Source of the DNA: Lachnospiraceae bacterium
Lineage (GTDB): Bacteria; Bacillota; Clostridia; Lachnospirales; Lachnospiraceae
Assembly: GCA_017521605.1 (NCBI GenBank)
Contig: JAFXCD010000004.1
Coordinates: forward strand, 1-64,000
Reading direction: 5' to 3'
Length of the DNA stretch: 64,000 bases
Made by a program: the position numbers and the translations under genes. Under the pieces are notes generated by a model that made no database searches, had not been told where the DNA came from, and saw nothing but the letters and a program-made list of their open reading frames with translations. Positions within the stretch are counted from its first letter, which is position 1; each line of letters begins with the position of its first letter. Of this stretch, positions 10,456 to 19,106 are shown in pieces.

Positions 10456-10512
10456 AAAAACTCCCATTCGGATACAAGCATGCATACCTTGTTACCAAAT
10501 GGGAGTTTTAAT
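10456..10512. terminator. Bidirectional terminator between convergent units
   Basis: The arms AACTCCCATT and AATGGGAGTT enclose a long loop; T runs flank both sides (TTTT on plus, TTTTT on minus). It ends both the GH5 transcript and the long minus-strand glgA-to-NlpC transcript. Confidence 0.75.
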
Positions 10513-10520
10513 TTCATCAC

Positions 10521-11231
10521 TTACATTTCAAAGGAATTATAAATCTTTTTTACATCCTCTTCATAATAATTTATCATTCTGTAATTGAATTTTTTTGTTG
10601 TTCTGTAAAGCACGGTTCTGCAAATAGACTCTCTAATGGAATAGAGGGATTTTCTCACTCCTGATGATAATTTTATCCTCTTTAAAAATATATTATCTTC
10701 TGTTTCAAAGTCTTCCGAACAGATATCTCTTTTCAGATTTTCAAAAGGTCTTAAAACCTCATATAAATCCTTTGGATGCATTTTATATGACTCCTTAGGT
10801 ATCTCTATTCCCTTAATAAAGGATAAAAGCACACAAATAAATTCTACACAATGATAGGATTTATAAGCTTTCACTCCACCAATGATAAACATTACCAGAG
10901 CTGATACATAATTAAAAGTATATTCCTTATCATTTTTTACATTTTCAACAAAACTATATATTTTTGTATACTCACTTTCACTTACAGGTACTTTAAACAC
11001 CATTTCTTTTAGGTATATATTTTCTTTTCCATGAAAATAGAACCCCTGAGTTTCTTCCACAAGTCCTCCTACAAATGGTATCTTGTCATTCTTAACCTGA
11101 AAAGAATACAGCCTTTCTAAATCTTCATCAAATGCTATAGAAAAATGAGTATATTCAAATTTAGTTATGAATGTAACATATTTATTGATAATTGTCGGAA
11201 GCTGCACCATTGTTATGTAAATATATTTCAT
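10521..11231 (-). CDS. Permuted NlpC/P60-like (YiiX/LRAT-like) protein
   Basis: This 236-aa protein resembles circularly permuted papain-fold proteins, in which the catalytic His precedes the Cys: H29 in YTHFSIAFD and C128 in YHCVEFIC, where the CxEF pattern is typical. Such proteins act as amidases or acyltransferases, some on lipids (LRAT type). The C-terminal ~100 residues are basic and helical with no recognised domain. Its ATG overlaps the stop of the radical SAM gene (TGATG), so it is coupled to it and is the last gene of the run. No signal peptide was seen. Fold assignment is moderately sure; the substrate is unknown. Confidence 0.6.
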   Translation of the reverse strand: MKYIYITMVQLPTIINKYVTFITKFEYTHFSIAFDEDLERLYSFQVKNDKIPFVGGLVEETQGFYFHGKENIYLKEMVFKVPVSESEYTKIYSFVENVKNDKEYTFNYVSALVMFIIGGVKAYKSYHCVEFICVLLSFIKGIEIPKESYKMHPKDLYEVLRPFENLKRDICSEDFETEDNIFLKRIKLSSGVRKSLYSIRESICRTVLYRTTKKFNYRMINYYEEDVKKIYNSFEM

Positions 11232-12568
11232 CAGATAATAATCGGCGCTATATTATGCTTAATATGATATCTGTAAAACATATTTACTCCGAAGTTGAAT
11301 AAGGAACGCATAGGATGCTTTAAAAAGGATTTGGTAAAGATTACTCTTTTAAATATGTTCTTAATAGAATAAACCTCATTATAAGTCCACCAATATAATC
11401 TATCTATATCCTCTGCAGATAATTGTTTATTTCTTTTAACTGCTTTTGATGGACTATACTCATAAATATTGTCGTTTATCAATTCCCCACTATCTTTTAC
11501 CTCATCAAAAAACGGAGTGCCCGGAATAGGTGTAATGATATAAAATTTAGGTGCAGTAATTTTATTATCAATTACAAATTGCGCTGTTTTCTTTATACTT
11601 TCTTCTGTATCATCATCAAGTCCAATCATCATCTCGGTAGCCACATCAATACCTGCATCAATGATGGTTTTCACTAATCTTCCATACTCTTTCGGATCTT
11701 CCCATGATTTATTCATTTTATGTAAATTGGTTTCTGTAATGGATTCCAGTCCAAAACTTAAGCAGATACAACCGCTGTCTGCAACGCATTTTAGCAATTC
11801 CGGATCTTCTGCAAGCTTTATGGAACACTGGCTATACCACTTCATATTCAGCTTCTTAATCTCTGCGCACAAATCCATTGTATATTTTCTATCCGATAAT
11901 ATATTGTCATCAATAAGCAAAAACTTTTTAAAGCCAAGCTCTTTTACTTTCTTGATATCTCTTATCACTTCCGGAATTTCACGTCTTAAATATTTTCCTT
12001 TATAGAGACACGCAATGGAGCAAAATGCGCAGCTGTTGGGGCATCCCCGTCCGGCCTGCACCGGTAAGAAGTCTCCGATTTTCTTAGAGGTTATAAGCTC
12101 ATACCTTGGCAATGGTGTGGATAAGGTTTCTATCTTCTTACTGTAAAACTCCTTCAGATTATCATTTAAATAATCATTCAACATATCCTGCCAGTAACCT
12201 TCCGCATCCCCAATTAATATAGCATCACAATATTGTTTTACTTCATCTGAAACCAGGCTGGCCATATAGCCACCCATCACAACTGTGTGACCCAGTTCTT
12301 TGAATTTCTTGGCTATTTCTATACCTCGAATAATGGAGTGCCCCATGCTGCCAATACCTATTAAGTCAATATCCGTATCCCATGGAATATCTTCAATTGT
12401 TTCAATACAGATTTCAACATCCCAGTCATCACCACACTCCGCTGCAAGTAATGGCATGGTAAGCCCAACAAAATATAGCATGTTCTTTTTTACAAGCAAG
12501 TGATTATTGTCATAAATTGTTGGCTGTATTAATAGCATCCTCTTTTCTTTCTTAAATTTATTTTCCAT
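11231..12568 (-). CDS. B12-binding-type radical SAM protein A
   Basis: A 445-aa radical SAM enzyme with an N-terminal Rossmann-like cobalamin-binding-type domain (about 1-140) and the cluster motif CPNSCAFC (C176, C180, C183), followed by the core barrel with LSFGLES and TPIPGTPFF. Such enzymes carry out methylations or C-C bond formation on unactivated carbons in lipids, peptides and cofactors. The start ATG (12566-12568) has AAAGG nine bases upstream; a TTG at 12577 is less likely. It overlaps radical SAM B by 11 bp and the NlpC-like gene by one base. The exact reaction is unknown. Confidence 0.8.
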   Translation of the reverse strand: MENKFKKEKRMLLIQPTIYDNNHLLVKKNMLYFVGLTMPLLAAECGDDWDVEICIETIEDIPWDTDIDLIGIGSMGHSIIRGIEIAKKFKELGHTVVMGGYMASLVSDEVKQYCDAILIGDAEGYWQDMLNDYLNDNLKEFYSKKIETLSTPLPRYELITSKKIGDFLPVQAGRGCPNSCAFCSIACLYKGKYLRREIPEVIRDIKKVKELGFKKFLLIDDNILSDRKYTMDLCAEIKKLNMKWYSQCSIKLAEDPELLKCVADSGCICLSFGLESITETNLHKMNKSWEDPKEYGRLVKTIIDAGIDVATEMMIGLDDDTEESIKKTAQFVIDNKITAPKFYIITPIPGTPFFDEVKDSGELINDNIYEYSPSKAVKRNKQLSAEDIDRLYWWTYNEVYSIKNIFKRVIFTKSFLKHPMRSLFNFGVNMFYRYHIKHNIAPIII

Positions 12569-13916
12569 AACGGCCAACCTTTCTGTATTCTACTATCATT
12601 CTTATGTAATGCCAAAGCATCCTCATTGCTCCAATAAAACATTTTGCAGTAATTTTAAATCCGCATTTTTGATACATGTAATAAAGTGAGGATAATGATG
12701 ATGTAGTACCAAAATACCCCTTTATAATCTGAATATAATACTGTGTAGGAGTTAATTTTGTAGGCATAATGGCCAAATGTGTCAAATCCCACTTTTCATA
12801 TTCTTCTCTTTTAATCAATAACCGATTTTTATATTTATCATAAATTTCTGTTCCCGGAAGCGGTACTAATGGTTGCAGATTTACAAATCTTATATGCATA
12901 CTTCTAATCCATCTGATAAAATTCTTAAAATCTTTTTTATCCCAGTCTGGTCCCACAATGGCTCCTGCATACAAATCCACACCATTTTCGTATAAAATAT
13001 CAGAAGCTTTCTTAGACGTTTCCACATCCGTTCTTTTATTAAAATCATTTAATTCATCCTGCTTAAAACTCTCAATTCCAACAAATACTGCATCTAAGCC
13101 ATGCTTACTTAACAGAGTAATCATATCCGGATTTTCTACTATAAAATCTGCACGCCCAAAAATAATAAATGTTTTATGTATATTGTTCTCATCCAACAAT
13201 TTGCAGAATTCAATAATCCTTTCCCTGCTTACCAAAAAATTATCATCTACAATAAAAACATTGGGCTCTTGTATATCCTTTAACTCTTCAATTACCGGCA
13301 TAAGCTCTCTTGTCCAGTAAGAATGGTCTGTAATGGATACACAAAAACAAAACTTACAGCTATATGGACAACCAAATGAAGTTTTTAACAAAGCACAGGG
13401 GGCATGATATGCATAATCATACCTCTTACGATATCTTTTGGTACTTTGCCTGTCCGGTTTGGGAAGTTTATAGCTCTTATCAATTGCATCATGCTTAAAT
13501 ACAGGTTTTTCATTCTTTGCAATGGCATTTAACAAAATTTCTGTATTTTGCATTCCGTTAATACCAAGCACATAATCTATATTTTTATATTTAAAATCAC
13601 CGGGAATTACTTCTGAATGCACACCACCAACAGCAGTAATGATCTTCCTACTTACACTCTTTACCACATCAGCATAACCCTTTATAACATTTACATGCGT
13701 TATATAGGACGTAAACATAACAACTCTCGGATTATATTTTCTTACAATTGCTTCCAGAGAGTTTCTTTCTAAAATCATATCTGCAATTTTCACTCTATGT
13801 CCCATCTTTTTCACTATAGAATATACATACTCAAGTTCCAATGGTTCACAGGTCATTAAATCCGTTAACCCCAGTGAATTTTTGTGTGGTTTTGGTCTGA
13901 CTAACAGTACTTTCAT
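12558..13916 (-). CDS. B12-binding-type radical SAM protein B
   Basis: A second 452-aa enzyme of the same architecture but divergent in sequence: B12-binding-type domain (about 1-140, with GGVHSEVIPG), cluster motif CPYSCKFC (C183, C187, C190) and a radical SAM barrel with PLPGTEIYDKY. The C-terminal ~70 residues are hydrophobic and basic (FIGAMRMLWHYIRM), suggesting membrane association, as in some lipid-modifying members. AAAGGTGA precedes the ATG. Two different enzymes side by side suggests successive or paired reactions on one substrate. Family secure, reaction unknown. Confidence 0.8.
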   Translation of the reverse strand: MKVLLVRPKPHKNSLGLTDLMTCEPLELEYVYSIVKKMGHRVKIADMILERNSLEAIVRKYNPRVVMFTSYITHVNVIKGYADVVKSVSRKIITAVGGVHSEVIPGDFKYKNIDYVLGINGMQNTEILLNAIAKNEKPVFKHDAIDKSYKLPKPDRQSTKRYRKRYDYAYHAPCALLKTSFGCPYSCKFCFCVSITDHSYWTRELMPVIEELKDIQEPNVFIVDDNFLVSRERIIEFCKLLDENNIHKTFIIFGRADFIVENPDMITLLSKHGLDAVFVGIESFKQDELNDFNKRTDVETSKKASDILYENGVDLYAGAIVGPDWDKKDFKNFIRWIRSMHIRFVNLQPLVPLPGTEIYDKYKNRLLIKREEYEKWDLTHLAIMPTKLTPTQYYIQIIKGYFGTTSSLSSLYYMYQKCGFKITAKCFIGAMRMLWHYIRMIVEYRKVGRYGK

Positions 13917-13934
13917 GATTCACCTTTCGTAAAT

Positions 13935-14924
13935 TTAATTAAATACATTAAAATCATATTCCTGAACTTTATATTCAAGCCAATGTACCTTTTTCTTAAT
14001 AATCCAGTTTATTAATCTGTTACTATGAGCCAACAAAAAATAATTATTATAGATATTAGCTCCGAATTTCAATTTTGCGTCATATGCAGTTTGTCCTAAC
14101 TGGATGTACTTAAAATTGTGTTCTATTGCATATTGTGTAATTCTGATAAGCATGTTGTGATATATATCGTATGTATGTGCTATTTCATAATTATAGCCGC
14201 AAAATTCAAATATCAACATATCATTTTTTATATCTTCAATGATTTGAATAAATGCTTCTGTCTTTCCATTAATCTTTAACAGCAGTGTTTTTGAAATATC
14301 ATTCCTAAAAAAATCCGCTGTCAGCTTTTCAAGAGAATACTGAGAATGATTAAATACCTGTTCGTAAAGCTGATACATTTCATCTGTAAAATCCTTATTC
14401 GATTCTAAGAACTCATATTCTATATCATTACCCTTTTTAAGTGCCTGATTAATTCTTCTTCTGTATCCCGAACGCATACTTTTCAGATATTCATCAAATG
14501 TCTTCCACTTATTTTCAATAACACAAATAGGGAGATAATGTCCCTTAACAAAACTGTCTAACTCTTCCTCTCCTATATTGATTAATATCTTGATGCCTTT
14601 CATTTTTTTCAACACCTGATTTAACTCTTTTGTATCTTCGTGGAATACGACACTTGAGTGTGATACAGAAAGCGGCAGATAAATAAACTTCATGTGACAA
14701 TTTATTTTATATTTATCTGTAAAAATAAATAAATTAAACCTTCTTTCAAACATCATAAAACCGGTATAGAGTTCTCCGTTTTTATAAAACAAATGGTAGG
14801 ATTGGTTACAGTAATTTACCCTCTCCATAAACGCCATAAACGCCTTGGACATATAAATATTCTTCTCACAAAGCTTATCCCATTCCTCCGGTAAATCTTT
14901 TGCAAATTGTATTTTCTTATACAT
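13935..14924 (-). CDS. FemAB/GNAT-like acyltransferase
   Basis: A 329-aa protein resembling the GNAT-fold BioF2/FemAB group that transfers acyl or aminoacyl groups to amines. The segment MRSGYRRRINQALKKG (mid-protein) resembles the basic helix of FemX/CelD-like members, and the C-terminal half has TEAFIQIIED and YIQLGQTAYDAKLKFGA, consistent with the second GNAT-like lobe. The start at ATG 14922-14924 is favoured by AGGAG five bases upstream; two further in-frame ATGs lie upstream, and the gene overlaps its neighbour by 8 bp. Donor and acceptor are unknown; an aminoacyl-tRNA or acyl-CoA/adenylate donor is possible. Confidence 0.6.
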   Translation of the reverse strand: MYKKIQFAKDLPEEWDKLCEKNIYMSKAFMAFMERVNYCNQSYHLFYKNGELYTGFMMFERRFNLFIFTDKYKINCHMKFIYLPLSVSHSSVVFHEDTKELNQVLKKMKGIKILINIGEEELDSFVKGHYLPICVIENKWKTFDEYLKSMRSGYRRRINQALKKGNDIEYEFLESNKDFTDEMYQLYEQVFNHSQYSLEKLTADFFRNDISKTLLLKINGKTEAFIQIIEDIKNDMLIFEFCGYNYEIAHTYDIYHNMLIRITQYAIEHNFKYIQLGQTAYDAKLKFGANIYNNYFLLAHSNRLINWIIKKKVHWLEYKVQEYDFNVFN

Positions 14925-15996
14925 CATTTCTCCTAAGAATTTCATATAAGTGAAATTCTTTATTTATTCCTGTGGCCATTTTTCTGCAAAGACTGGTTGA
15001 TTCTTTATTATCTTCTAAAATAAATGATGATGATCCATATGTAAAATCTTTTCTTCTAAGCTTTAATGAAAAATCAATCAAATTCATTGCAAGACCACTT
15101 CTTTGGTAATCCGGTAATACACCAATCACATTGTATATTATACGTTTGGGTTTAGTTGTTAGTAATTTAGTCAAAAATGTAATGTAGTTAAGACGACCAT
15201 TGTTAAAAAGCTCTGCATAATCCGGATGGGTATATATAAAGCCAACCTCTTTGCCATCCTTCATGGCAAATATGATATCTTCATCCTTAAAGAATAGTTT
15301 TGTCTGCCTCATCAATTCATACATTTCATAAGGAGTTTTTTCAGAATAATATGGTGTCTGCTTAAGTGATTCATGACAAAGCCTACCAAAAATCAGCATT
15401 TCTTCTTTAAAACGCTTTTTCTCAAAAAACCTAAATTGGTACTCTCTATAATTCTTATCCAATAAATTATTATCAAAAAATTTTACACTGTTATTCACAT
15501 CATATTTGTAGGAAAATGCCCGTTTCATTACCGGGAATACTTTGTCCATTTCATTCGTGTAATAATCTTTATTATAGTTTGAATTGAATTCAAACTTTTG
15601 ATTATATTCACTGGTTAAAATCCCCAGTCCGTAACTTATTTGACCATTAATACCAACAATGGTTTTGCTTTTTTCATATTTACTCATAAGCTTATTTGAA
15701 ATATCAATTATCTTTTTCAAATATTTTTCAGCCTTGGGCAGAAACTCTACAAAAGCTAGCTTGATTTCACTGGTTTCATCTATGACAAAAATGCATTCCA
15801 GCTTTGGTTCCTTATTATCATAAATAATAATAGGTAAAATCTTATGTCTTTTTGCATAACTATCTTTTTTATATAAAAAGTTTCTTACAAAAATCACATT
15901 CATATCGCAATAATTTTTGTCATTTTCATATATCTTATATAAAAAATCCAGATAATCCTTCTTTTGTTTCTTCGTTTTTACTCTAACGATTTCCAT
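14917..15996 (-). CDS. GNAT-family N-acyltransferase
   Basis: A 359-aa protein with a C-terminal GNAT domain: FAMKDGKEVGFIY is the central strand pair and VLPDYQRSGLAMNLIDF is the acyl-CoA pyrophosphate-binding motif A (Q/RxxGxG/A type). The N-terminal ~200 residues appear to be a second, poorly conserved GNAT-like lobe with KTIVGINGQISYGLG. It starts inside the 3' end of the AMP-ligase gene (14-bp overlap), with AAGGG eight bases upstream, so the ligase and this transferase are translationally coupled. The ligase probably supplies its acyl donor, which is inference. Confidence 0.65.
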   Translation of the reverse strand: MEIVRVKTKKQKKDYLDFLYKIYENDKNYCDMNVIFVRNFLYKKDSYAKRHKILPIIIYDNKEPKLECIFVIDETSEIKLAFVEFLPKAEKYLKKIIDISNKLMSKYEKSKTIVGINGQISYGLGILTSEYNQKFEFNSNYNKDYYTNEMDKVFPVMKRAFSYKYDVNNSVKFFDNNLLDKNYREYQFRFFEKKRFKEEMLIFGRLCHESLKQTPYYSEKTPYEMYELMRQTKLFFKDEDIIFAMKDGKEVGFIYTHPDYAELFNNGRLNYITFLTKLLTTKPKRIIYNVIGVLPDYQRSGLAMNLIDFSLKLRRKDFTYGSSSFILEDNKESTSLCRKMATGINKEFHLYEILRRNDV

Positions 15997-17443
15997 CTCT
16001 TAATCCCTTACTGATTATTCGAAATTCGGAGATCTTTTTATAGTCCGGTAAATTGCTGTTTATTTGGGAAATATATACTTTCAGCTTATCTTCAGAAAGT
16101 CCTGTATCCAAAATTGCAATTATTTTGTTATCTTCCATTTTTATAACACAATCACAGATCTCTTTATTTTCTTTTATGATTTTTGATAACTCTATGGCTG
16201 AAACATTTTTCCCATTATCACCTATTAATATTTCTTTTTTCCGACCTGTAATATATAGGAAACCACCTTTAACATATCCCAGATCACCGGTCTTAAAATA
16301 GTCACCAATAAAACAATCGTTTTTTTCCTCATTAACATACTTCTTGATAATATTTTTACCACTGACACAAATCTCACCAATTCCATCTTTATCTGCATCC
16401 ATAATCACAATATCATTGTTGAGGATTCTACCTACCGAATCATATCTGTTATTCTTTTCATAACTGATTGCTATAGGCCCCGAAGTTTCTGTCATTCCAT
16501 ATCCACTATATAAGGGAAGGCCAATATCATCAAAAAATTTGTTTGTATCAGGATTGGCCATACTTCCACCGGATACAGAAAAATAATAATTACTGCCAAA
16601 ATAGTTATGGATTTCTTTAAAAAGCTTTTTCCGAATATCCACCTTGAAAAAAAGCAATACTTTAGACAACCCGATGCTAAATTTTAGCTTTGCTCCACCC
16701 TTTTCATAAGCTTTATCCCTTATTTTATTAAAGATAAGCGGAACTCCCAGAAAAATACTTGGATTTGTCTTTTTCAGTACATCCTCCAATCTGGAATAAT
16801 CCCACTCAAGAATATTTGTAATCCCTGCATAAATACCATGAAAAAGTGAGGTTAATGCATAAATATGATAAAGAGGAATAACAAATAAACAGGAATGCTT
16901 ATTCATTACCTTCCAACTCTCATTTAAATCTTTTATTATGTATAAATACATTTCTTCCGTTAGTGAAATACATTTGGGATTGCCTGTTGTTCCGGATGTA
17001 TGTAAAGTCAGATTACCTGCAAAGGATTGTTCTGTCTCAAATTCATAATTTGCCTTCATTATTTCATGAATCCGGCTAAATTTCAAAATGTCTGTTTCCT
17101 CATACTCTATGCTTATCTCATCATCCACAATAAGCATGTCCGGACGCATTTCATTGAATAATTTATCTAATTCTCCTTTTTTAAATTCTTTATCCACTAC
17201 AAATACAGAACCAATATTACACAATATTGCCAAAAGGGATACTAAATATTCCAATTTATTGTTTCCGATTATAGCAATCGTTTTATTTTTATATTCAGAA
17301 AGATAACCTGATACTGAAATAATATAATCATATAACTCATTATAAGTTATACTCTGATAGGTATCTGTCCCGGCAGTTCTGTAGACAACTGCGGCCCCAT
17401 CTTTTTCTCTATTTTTGTTTATCCATTCCAATACTTTACTCAT
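15983..17443 (-). CDS. AMP-dependent acyl/aryl ligase, atypical C-terminus
   Basis: An ANL-superfamily adenylating enzyme (486 aa). Visible core motifs: A3 TSGTTGNPK (149-157), A5 YGMTE (315-319), A7 KTGDLG (384-389) and A8 GRKKE (400-404). These activate carboxylic acids as acyl-AMP. The protein ends SKGLRDGNR where relatives have the A10 motif PKTxxGK; the catalytic lysine seems replaced by Asn485 or lost by truncation, because the end of the gene overlaps the next start. Loss of A10 Lys usually impairs adenylation but not always thioesterification. It is 22 bp after the flippase gene, so it is probably in the same transcript. Confidence 0.85.
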   Translation of the reverse strand: MSKVLEWINKNREKDGAAVVYRTAGTDTYQSITYNELYDYIISVSGYLSEYKNKTIAIIGNNKLEYLVSLLAILCNIGSVFVVDKEFKKGELDKLFNEMRPDMLIVDDEISIEYEETDILKFSRIHEIMKANYEFETEQSFAGNLTLHTSGTTGNPKCISLTEEMYLYIIKDLNESWKVMNKHSCLFVIPLYHIYALTSLFHGIYAGITNILEWDYSRLEDVLKKTNPSIFLGVPLIFNKIRDKAYEKGGAKLKFSIGLSKVLLFFKVDIRKKLFKEIHNYFGSNYYFSVSGGSMANPDTNKFFDDIGLPLYSGYGMTETSGPIAISYEKNNRYDSVGRILNNDIVIMDADKDGIGEICVSGKNIIKKYVNEEKNDCFIGDYFKTGDLGYVKGGFLYITGRKKEILIGDNGKNVSAIELSKIIKENKEICDCVIKMEDNKIIAILDTGLSEDKLKVYISQINSNLPDYKKISEFRIISKGLRDGNR

Positions 17444-17465
17444 TATCTACCTCAATATATAGTGT

Positions 17466-19106
17466 TTAGTGCATCAATCGCATCTTCTTTGCCAGTCTTA
17501 CTAATAAATACCCCTTAGGCATTCCTCGTAATTCCTCTTCACTTACCCCCTTAAAAAGTACCAAAAGCACAAAATATAACACTACCGCTATCAATATAGC
17601 AGGAATTACGGATATAATATTAGACTCTGTTATCATATAAAGACCTTCATAAACAACCCATGCACAAGCCCCCATAAAGATAGCTGCCAACGTCGGAATC
17701 ATAAAGGTTGTAAACACTTCCTGACGATATCCCAATACTTTTCTCACTGCCATCTGATTCAACACACATATCACACCGGAATATACCGTACTTGCAATTG
17801 CTAATGCATATAAATCCAAATCCGTCCATAGAAGCAATGGCACCAATACCGTTGTTTGCGCCACCAAAGCGATAACTGCATGATTGATAGGTGTATTCAC
17901 CTTTCCTATTCCCTGCAATATAGAATTGCTCAAGGTAGATAGGGCATAAAGCACCACTGAAAGAGCCAATGTCATCAAAATATGAGAAGCATGTTCCAGA
18001 TTCTCATTGGGGAATAATAACCATACTACTGGCTTTGCCAGCACTAAAAGTCCTATTGCTGAAGGAATGGACAAAATCATAATAGTCTTTACTGCACTAA
18101 AAATCTTATCCTTTGCATCTTCATACTTTCTGGCTGTTACTGCCTGTGCAATAGTTGGAATAATAGCTGCTGCCATAGCTGAAGCAAAAGCAATGGGGAT
18201 ATTGGAAATCTTTACAGCCTCTCCGTTAAAGATACCATATCTTTCGCTGACAAGCGTTGATTCTACATTTTTATATCCTATCATAATACTGGTATAAATC
18301 TTAGTATTCAATGCTGTGCTTAAATTATATGCCGCTGTACTCAATATAAATGGTAAAACCACACCTGCAATCAATCCACTAATTTCGCGATAAGAATCCA
18401 ACTTCCCGCTCTTATCCCTATACATACGTTTCTGGAAATAATCTCTGTTCAGCAAATAAATACTGAACATAAATAGAAGCGCTACTAATACACCGGCACC
18501 GGTACCGAGAGCACTACCCATAGCACCATACACGGCCGTATTATCTGCACCACCTTCTGCCACTGCTTTTTGCGCAATTTTCACAAAAGCATAAGCTGCA
18601 ACGATACTGACAATGGCATTTACAATCTGCTCCAATATCTGAGAAACAGAGGTTTGAATCATACTTTTATGAGCCTGAAAATAACCACGCAGCACTCCCA
18701 ATATACCATACAGGGAAATCGTAGGGGCAAACACCCTTAAAACCGGAATAGCCGCGGGATCATCCATAAAAAATCCTGCACCAAAGTACAAAAACAGACT
18801 GGCAATTAACCCAACCGCCAGTACATAGTAAAGAGAGCACATAAAAATTTTATGTGCATTTCTATATTCTTTTAAGGACAGCTTCTGTGCAATCACCTTT
18901 GAAATAGCAGAAGGAATACTATAAGATGAGATTAACAATATAATCGTATAATAACTGTAGGCTGAGGAATAATACCCCAGCCCTACTCCGCCTATAATGA
19001 TTGTCACCGGACTCACATACAAAAGTCCTATGATTCTGCTGATAAATCCCGCACCGGCTAATAATCCGGCCTGCCGGATAAAACCATTTTGTTTTTGGTT
19101 ACTCAT
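17466..19106 (-). CDS. MurJ/SpoVB-like MOP-family flippase
   Basis: A 546-aa polytopic membrane protein of the MOP/MATE fold, SpoVB/MurJ group, which flips lipid-linked precursors across the membrane. The N-terminus (FIRQAGLLAGAGFISRIIGLLY) shows the family's first helix, and about 14 hydrophobic segments follow. In SpoVB-type members the cargo is lipid II or a lipid-linked polysaccharide. Here the gene lies 12 bp after glgA and 22 bp before the ligase/acyltransferase genes, so it could export the product of that cluster, or be a housekeeping flippase that acquired new neighbours. AAGGAAG overlaps the glgA stop. Confidence 0.88.
   Translation of the reverse strand: MSNQKQNGFIRQAGLLAGAGFISRIIGLLYVSPVTIIIGGVGLGYYSSAYSYYTIILLISSYSIPSAISKVIAQKLSLKEYRNAHKIFMCSLYYVLAVGLIASLFLYFGAGFFMDDPAAIPVLRVFAPTISLYGILGVLRGYFQAHKSMIQTSVSQILEQIVNAIVSIVAAYAFVKIAQKAVAEGGADNTAVYGAMGSALGTGAGVLVALLFMFSIYLLNRDYFQKRMYRDKSGKLDSYREISGLIAGVVLPFILSTAAYNLSTALNTKIYTSIMIGYKNVESTLVSERYGIFNGEAVKISNIPIAFASAMAAAIIPTIAQAVTARKYEDAKDKIFSAVKTIMILSIPSAIGLLVLAKPVVWLLFPNENLEHASHILMTLALSVVLYALSTLSNSILQGIGKVNTPINHAVIALVAQTTVLVPLLLWTDLDLYALAIASTVYSGVICVLNQMAVRKVLGYRQEVFTTFMIPTLAAIFMGACAWVVYEGLYMITESNIISVIPAILIAVVLYFVLLVLFKGVSEEELRGMPKGYLLVRLAKKMRLMH

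What the first reader, a model, noticed from the sequence alone, without database searches (positions are those of the whole stretch)
10521..19106. Flippase + ligase + two acyltransferases + two B12 radical SAM enzymes + permuted NlpC: a likely undescribed acylated-molecule pathway
Seven genes lie head to tail with overlaps of 1-14 bp or gaps of at most 22 bp. The set contains an acid-activating ligase, two acyl/aminoacyl transferases, two distinct radical SAM enzymes suited to modifying unactivated carbons, an LRAT/NlpC-like enzyme and a MurJ-type exporter. Together they could build and flip an unusual lipid or lipopeptide, such as a membrane-spanning or methylated lipid. I know no named pathway with this combination.
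Basis: partly seen in the sequence, partly recalled or inferred. Interest (0 to 1): 0.8.

Follow-up and report, generated by a model that had tools for sequence, protein, structure and literature searches.

The report
Conserved B12 radical-SAM and aminoacyltransferase operon
Five of the seven genes form an apparently undescribed biosynthetic operon, found in many anaerobic gut and sediment bacteria, that probably builds an amino-acid-containing acylated small molecule edited by vitamin-B12 radical enzymes; the flippase is an ordinary housekeeping neighbour.

Summary
All seven genes are there, head to tail, but only P2-P6 form a conserved pathway. The flippase (P7) is host core: 58 of 61 genus genomes carry it, beside glgA in 11 of 11 relatives examined. 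The NlpC/LRAT-like P1 was labelled in none of 57 other loci. P2 orthologs are 51-84% identical across Lachnospiraceae, Clostridium, Acetoanaerobium and a Fibrobacter contig. They sit with P3 and the same two GNAT-fold transferases in 40 of 56 loci; 10 of the 16 exceptions are cut by the end of held DNA. Other versions add 1-3 B12 radical SAM genes and a methyltransferase. P4 folds like aminoacyl-tRNA-dependent transferases, P5 like mycothiol synthase. The window-type ligase ends 2-6 residues before the A10 lysine position and lacks the adjacent carrier-protein gene; 23 of 24 lysine-bearing ligases keep that gene, so 'acid-activating' is doubtful here. Best reading: a non-NRPS, non-PKS route to an acylated aminoacyl compound, C-modified by cobalamin radical SAM enzymes. 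Product unknown.

The parts
10521..11231 (-). P1: permuted NlpC/P60 (LRAT/YiiX-like) protein, 236 aa; optional local passenger
   Evidence: No Pfam hit; H29 and C128 conserved in 4 of 4 aligned sequences; labelled in none of the 57 other loci; 28.3% GC, like the island; homolog at G000:C38 in a PlsC/ligase/B12-rSAM/CDP-alcohol transferase operon
11231..12577 (-). P2: radical SAM protein of a family with B12-binding N-terminal domain; most conserved member (family B)
   Evidence: Radical_SAM 57.8 bits; 20 of 22 family members hit Pfam B12-binding, P2 itself not; orthologs 52-84% identical; CxxxCxxC in 22 of 22; nearest solved chains AprD4 (6fd2) and 9ccb
12558..13916 (-). P3: B12-binding radical SAM protein, HpnR-like (family C)
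   Evidence: B12-binding and Radical_SAM; HpnR model 172.7 bits against cut-off 650; family profile hits AprD4, OxsB, TokK, CysS; CxxxCxxC in 23 of 23
13935..14945 (-). P4: double-GNAT FemX-like transferase, predicted aminoacyl-tRNA dependent
14917..15996 (-). P5: tandem GNAT, mycothiol-synthase-like, predicted CoA/ACP-dependent N-acyltransferase
15983..17443 (-). P6: AMP-binding (ANL) protein ending before the A10 lysine
   Evidence: AMP-binding 143.8 bits; A3, A5, A7 motifs present; A10 motif absent in 6 of 6 members of this clade, the protein ending 2-6 residues before that position, and no room for an ACP ORF before the GNAT gene
17466..19106 (-). P7: MurJ/SpoVB-like flippase; adjacent but not part of the pathway
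   Evidence: Present in 58 of 61 genus genomes; beside glgA in the 11 best-matching relatives, 11 of 11; 39.4% GC, as the host
10457..10509 (.). Inverted repeat just after P1, possible end of the transcription unit
   Evidence: 22-nt arms, 86% complementary, 9 nt between; not listed by the terminator scan; function not tested

Best explanation
P2-P6 are the minimal form of a biosynthetic operon that appears to move horizontally. SHOWN: the quartet P5 (tandem GNAT), P4 (FemX-fold GNAT), P3 and P2 (cobalamin-type radical SAM) is a conserved unit; a MenE/FadD-like ligase plus carrier protein is a frequent add-on; further B12 radical SAM genes and a methyltransferase occur in other lineages; the flippase is a core neighbour. 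INFERRED: P5 acylates an amine using acyl-CoA or acyl-ACP; P4 adds an amino acid taken from aminoacyl-tRNA; P3 and P2 make C-methyl groups or new C-C bonds at unreactive carbons, P2 acting on the invariant core of the molecule. The product would be a small, probably lipid-like acylated aminoacyl compound made without NRPS, PKS or RiPP machinery. In the window's clade the ligase has lost its A10 lysine motif and the neighbouring ACP gene together, so acyl groups probably come from the cell's own acyl-CoA or acyl-ACP pool, or P6 works in a non-standard way.
For: Quartet present in 40 of 56 P2-selected loci; the other 16 are 10 truncated, 2 frame-broken, 2 not orthologs, 1 whose contig ends before P2, 1 lacking FemX. 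Also in 6 of 7 P4-selected loci, 2 of the 3 independent of the P2 set, and in Acetoanaerobium noterae. P4 fold: aminoacyl-tRNA-dependent peptide synthases, FemX and MprF on top, K291 invariant. P5 fold: MshD-type tandem GNAT with the acyl-CoA loop. P2/P3 families: radical SAM plus B12-binding, nearest OxsB/TokK/CysS/AprD4. Ligase nearer MenE (152 bits) and fatty-acid ligase (138) than amino-acid adenylation (71.5). FeeM N-acyl-amino-acid synthase genes in L077, L080 and L074, beside a PS-decarboxylase family gene (L077, L080) or an Orn/Arg-decarboxylase family gene (L074). The genome has a cobalamin riboswitch and 6 B12-binding domains over the cut-off. A10 and ACP vanish together: absent in 6 of 6 window-clade loci, while 23 of 24 A10-bearing ligases have the ACP next door.
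Confidence: 0.5

Rival explanations
1. A membrane-lipid tailoring pathway: the radical SAM enzymes methylate or couple fatty acyl chains of phospholipids or glycolipids, and the GNATs modify the head group.
For: P3's best NCBIfam model is the hopanoid C-3 methylase HpnR. A second operon of the same genome joins a P1 homolog, an HpnR-like B12 radical SAM, a fatty-acid ligase, PlsC and a CDP-alcohol phosphatidyltransferase. P1 homologs in two other genomes lie between a family 2 glycosyltransferase and an LPG_synthase_TM protein. PS-decarboxylase family genes beside the operon in L077 and L080. P4 resembles MprF, which aminoacylates phosphatidylglycerol (its role recalled).
Against: The constant quartet holds no recognised glycerolipid enzyme. 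Bacterial membrane-spanning lipids are ascribed to Mss and Ger (PMC13274423, passages); no chain named as tetraether synthase is among the PDB hits of P2 or P3. HpnR cut-off not met.
Confidence: 0.25
2. A small non-lipid aminoacyl or peptidyl metabolite (metallophore, signal or antibiotic-like), P5 transferring a short acyl group and P4 an amino acid.
For: Best fold matches of P4 are aminoacyl-tRNA-dependent peptide synthases solved with streptothrisamine; P5 matches mycothiol synthase and glucosamine N-acetyltransferase, which use acetyl-CoA.
Against: No exporter or resistance gene recurs within the operons in the clustering; single cases exist (an ABC ATPase without permease in three loci; an EamA transporter upstream in A. 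noterae). The ligase is nearest MenE and fatty-acid ligases.
Confidence: 0.2
3. All seven genes, flippase and NlpC-like protein included, are one pathway that builds and flips an unusual lipid.
For: Head-to-tail packing; P1 shares the low GC of P2-P6; a P1 homolog lies in another ligase/B12 radical SAM operon of the genome.
Against: P7 is genus core beside glgA in relatives that lack the cassette and on another contig than the cassette in G316; P7 and P1 were labelled in none of the 57 other loci.
Confidence: 0.06
4. A ladderane-like or polyunsaturated hydrocarbon pathway.
For: B12 radical SAM plus ligase plus ACP recalls the anammox and Desulfotalea clusters (PMC2649909, passages); weak rSAM_ladder_B12 hits. 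Near misses in single loci: a divergently transcribed Amino_oxidase family gene beside the operon in L077/L135 and an enoyl-ACP-reductase family gene about 1 kb upstream in L072.
Against: No ketosynthase was seen by eye in the operons listed, and neither near miss recurs. rSAM_ladder_B12 63.4 and 55.9 bits against cut-off 360.
Confidence: 0.03

Closest known systems
Aminoacyl-tRNA-dependent GNAT-fold transferases (FemX, MprF C-domain, Sba18/Sbb17; natural-product members VlmA, DhpH-C, PacB in the review PMC12945691, passages read)
   Same: P4 has the double-GNAT fold and a conserved lysine near the C-terminus
   Different: About 7-15% identity; set beside a second GNAT and radical SAM genes
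Mycothiol synthase MshD and other tandem GNATs
   Same: P5 tandem GNAT fold, C-terminal acyl-CoA loop kept
   Different: About 7-13% identity for the top rows; paired with a FemX-like partner; substrate unknown
HpnR (hopanoid C-3 methylase) and cobalamin radical SAM enzymes TokK, CysS, OxsB
   Same: B12-binding plus radical SAM architecture; P3 aligns to HpnR model positions 1-408 of 490
   Different: 172.7 bits against cut-off 650; no hopanoid gene noticed in the operons (by eye)
Ladderane/PUFA clusters of Kuenenia and Desulfotalea (PMC2649909, passages)
   Same: Radical SAM with B12 domain and a ligase in an anaerobe
   Different: Those clusters are built round FASII genes and phytoene-dehydrogenase-like enzymes; such genes are not part of the conserved set here
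Mss/Ger bacterial membrane-spanning lipid genes (PMC13274423, passages)
   Same: Radical chemistry, Bacillota hosts
   Different: Mss is described there as sharing the catalytic architecture of Tes; no such hit for P2 or P3; no PlsA/Ger-like gene noticed in the operons (by eye)

Membership tests
Cobalamin-dependent radical SAM superfamily | Radical SAM domain with CxxxCxxC and a B12-binding domain | tested here: met
   P3 both domains over cut-off; P2 family CxxxCxxC in 22 of 22 and B12-binding at E<=0.01 in 20 of 22, P2 itself being one of the two without a hit; cobalamin binding not assayed
HpnR hopanoid C-3 methylase | Score over NCBIfam TIGR04367 cut-off (650 bits) | tested here: not met
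   P3 172.7 bits
FemX/MprF-type aminoacyl-tRNA transferase | Double-GNAT fold | tested here: met
FemX/MprF-type aminoacyl-tRNA transferase | Use of aminoacyl-tRNA as donor | not testable with these tools
   Needs an assay; invariant K291 is suggestive only
ANL acyl-CoA/ACP ligase | AMP-binding core with A3, A5, A7 motifs | tested here: met
   143.8 bits, motifs
ANL acyl-CoA/ACP ligase | C-terminal A10 catalytic lysine (role recalled, not from a call) | tested here: not met
   Motif absent in 6 of 6 of the window clade; in the alignment 5 of 5 clade rows end 2-6 residues before it and 17 of 17 other rows have the lysine
Ladderane cluster | rSAM_ladder_B12 equivalog TIGR04072 (360 bits) | tested here: not met
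   63.4 (P2) and 55.9 (P3) bits
Ladderane cluster | FASII paralogues and phytoene-dehydrogenase-like genes in the cluster | tested here: inconclusive
   None among the window genes scanned; in relatives judged by eye, with single near misses in L072 and L077/L135
Membrane-spanning lipid synthase Mss/Tes | Homology to Tes/Mss | tested here: inconclusive
   No chain named tetraether synthase among P2/P3 PDB hits; no Mss sequence was compared directly
SpoVB | Score over TIGR02900 cut-off (372.3 bits) | tested here: not met
   P7 163.2 bits; Pfam MurJ 61.1 against 27.4 is met
Permuted NlpC/P60 (LRAT/YiiX) | Catalytic His before Cys (recalled definition) | tested here: met
   H29 and C128 conserved in 4 of 4; but no Pfam family hit

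The most novel reading that the evidence does not exclude
A new class of bacterial lipoamino or aminoacyl-lipid compounds, assembled with no NRPS, PKS or RiPP core by a tRNA-dependent FemX-fold transferase plus a tandem GNAT and then remodelled by two to five cobalamin radical SAM enzymes. The cassette has moved between phyla (Lachnospiraceae and Fibrobacter). In the window's clade the activating ligase has been stripped of its catalytic lysine motif and its carrier protein, a natural rewiring from a dedicated ligase/ACP supply to the host acyl pool.
Probability: 0.35. Interest if true: 0.85.

Novelty: new variant of a known kind. Interest (0 to 1): 0.66.

Why it matters
If true, rumen and sediment anaerobes carry a patchy but far-spread, unnamed pathway that performs several B12 radical steps on one acylated scaffold. 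The quartet is a ready genome-mining signature, the five-gene window form is a small target for expression, and the P2 family is a conserved radical SAM subgroup whose reaction could be tested. The paired loss of the ligase's lysine motif and of the ACP is a natural experiment on how such pathways change their acyl supply.

Tried and rejected
Flippase as exporter: rejected. An ACP hidden in the window cluster: the genome has two PF00550 carriers, both on other contigs, and the ligase-to-GNAT spacing in the clade is -14 to 8 nt. HpnR, ladderane and Tes/Mss membership: see the membership table. Amino-acid adenylation by P6: weaker (71.5 against 152 bits). Phage carriage of P4: no match in 50,697 phage records at E<=1e-5. 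Plasmid carriage of P2: of 12 matching records the best was a 2.6-Mb replicon labelled a plasmid of Acetoanaerobium noterae, without gene annotation. Repeats and Rfam gave nothing specific (one tRNA); promoter-like sites were at the shuffle level (59 against 58.3), terminator-like sites somewhat above it (11 against 5.8). Paper searches returned nothing; others returned lists in which I saw no such pathway; the library is open-access PMC only.

Limits of my counts. The scan used two short peptide patterns and is a lower bound: L137 and L138 hold P2 orthologs it did not return. My first ORF selection hid the ACP in L041, L082 and L084 behind antisense ORFs; searches corrected this. L064 is the same contig as L006 and was left out of the tree; L086 and L090 are not orthologs and were left out of it too. 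The 40 of 56 is the 39 scored plus L064, whose quartet is seen. The motif test missed A10 in L060, L070 and L071 (K-T-S-S instead of N-S-S); L060 and L070 are confirmed in the alignment and L071 was read by eye. L080's ligase is a distinct one with A10 and no ACP beside it; it is the one exception in 23 of 24. Nothing in this check required a change of odds.
Full report
WHAT IS THERE. Seven ORFs run head to tail on the - strand, 10521-19106. Pfam and NCBIfam give MurJ/SpoVB-like P7, AMP-binding P6, GNAT P5, Acetyltransf_6 (weakly FemAB-like) P4, B12-binding radical SAM P3, radical SAM P2, and an unlisted P1. P1 keeps the His and Cys of a permuted NlpC/LRAT enzyme in 4 of 4 aligned sequences. 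P1-P6 are at 28-36% GC; P7 and glgA at 38-39%.

WHICH GENES BELONG TOGETHER. A first look in 299 family genomes found P4 in 4; besides the window only one (G112) was a good match, and it had the same gene order: ligase, a 75-aa acyl carrier protein, GNAT, FemX-like, three B12 radical SAM genes and the P2 ortholog, with no flippase and no P1. A pattern scan of a collection of 84,980 species genomes with P2 and its G112 ortholog returned 56 loci: 53 at 52-84% identity and 3 at 20-25%. I labelled genes in all 56 by BLAST against the window proteins and the ACP and split the radical SAM proteins into families A-F on a tree. GNAT, FemX, C (=P3) and B (=P2) are all present in 40 of 56 loci: 39 plus L064, which is the G112 contig. 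Of the other 16, ten are cut by the end of the held DNA, two are frame-broken (L072, L078), two are not orthologs (L086, L090), one contig ends before B (L089) and one lacks FemX (L066). Because P2 was the bait, I repeated the search with the P4 profile in 398 phylum genomes: 8 hits including the window. Of the 7 other neighbourhoods, 6 hold the quartet and L139 lacks B. Four of the 7 repeat loci of the first set or a near-identical one; of the three independent ones (L137, L138, L139) two hold the quartet. Acetoanaerobium noterae also has it. A form without ligase or ACP nearby, GNAT-FemX-D-MT-C-E-B or a shuffled order of these, recurs in Clostridium, Formimonas, Acetoanaerobium and others; MT matches BioC below its cut-off (62.7 against 184.95 bits).

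The five closest loci (L035-L039) contain ligase-GNAT-FemX-C-B, and four different kinds of neighbourhood surround them. One lies in a contig recorded as Fibrobacter, which carries a Fib_succ_major protein 7 kb away. In the window's own genus only 4 of 138 genomes have P4, the window's included. The cassette therefore looks laterally acquired.

The flippase is present in 58 of 61 genus genomes, and glgA lies beside it in the 11 best-matching relatives, 11 of 11. In G316 the flippase is on contig 24 and the cassette on contig 80. P1 and P7 were labelled in none of the 57 other loci. P1 homologs reach 8 of 138 genus genomes, the window's included; a second copy in this genome lies in an operon PlsC - fatty-acid ligase - HpnR-like B12 radical SAM - CDP-alcohol phosphatidyltransferase - P1-like. 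P1 may thus be a lipid-related passenger, but it is not part of the conserved pathway.

THE LIGASE. In 23 ACP-linked loci, 23 of 23, the ligase ends in a K/R-N/T-S/G-S/T-x-K-I motif (the A10 lysine, whose role in adenylation I recall from general knowledge). In the window and L035-L039, 6 of 6, the motif is missing, the protein stops 2 (window) to 6 residues before that lysine in the 5 rows aligned, and no ACP fits between ligase and GNAT. L080's distinct ligase has the lysine and no ACP beside it. Other ANL motifs remain. Against a simple 'dead ligase': five of the six end in a lysine that might substitute; the window's ends in arginine.

WHAT IS KNOWN. No curated equivalog cut-off is met by P2 or P3. 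Ten searches of the held open-access library showed no such pathway; papers under subscription were not searchable. Ladderane clusters (PMC2649909, passages) and Mss/Ger lipids (PMC13274423, passages) differ in defining parts, although single relatives have an Amino_oxidase family gene (L077/L135) or an enoyl-ACP-reductase family gene (L072) nearby.

VERDICT. The parts are of known kinds; the combination and its far-spread, patchy distribution are new to me and to the searches made.

Noticed in passing
L120:10608-15658 (G000:C38, about 132.6-137.7 kb): Second operon in the same genome: PlsC-like acyltransferase, long-chain fatty-acid ligase, HpnR-like B12 radical SAM, CDP-alcohol phosphatidyltransferase and a P1 homolog; at E<=1e-60 its radical SAM gene has no other match in 138 genus genomes except the P3-type gene of G316.
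   Followed up: partly
L122:418-3068 and L123:7007-9844: P1-like permuted NlpC gene between a family 2 glycosyltransferase and an LPG_synthase_TM membrane protein, a possible glycolipid operon.
   Followed up: partly
L025:6980-12164 and L026:6465-14265: Other Lachnospiraceae carry arrays of 3 or 5 radical SAM genes plus one GNAT-like gene (GNAT by eye); a different, also unnamed set.
   Followed up: no
L040:7305-9435, L055:6697-8791, L085:2460-4597: Three genes inserted within the operon: an ABC ATPase, a CobW/HypB-like GTPase and an Fe-S protein, possibly metal or cofactor supply.
   Followed up: partly
L077:11336-12624, L080:11360-12594, L074:10825-12541: FeeM-type N-acyl-amino-acid synthase next to a PS-decarboxylase family or Orn/Arg-decarboxylase family gene inside or beside the operon.
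   Followed up: partly
L037:5125-6577: The Fibrobacter copy has its ligase split into two ORFs while the other four genes stay open.
   Followed up: no
L138:18573-19499 and L139:16300-17559: Serpin genes (Pfam PF00079) lie near the operon in two genomes of different families; perhaps chance.
   Followed up: partly
L135:12464-13951 and L072:1351-2160: An Amino_oxidase family gene diverging from the operon, and an enoyl-ACP-reductase family gene about 1 kb upstream of it; each seen once.
   Followed up: partly
window:9491-10438: GH5 cellulase-family gene, convergent with P1 across an inverted repeat.
   Followed up: no
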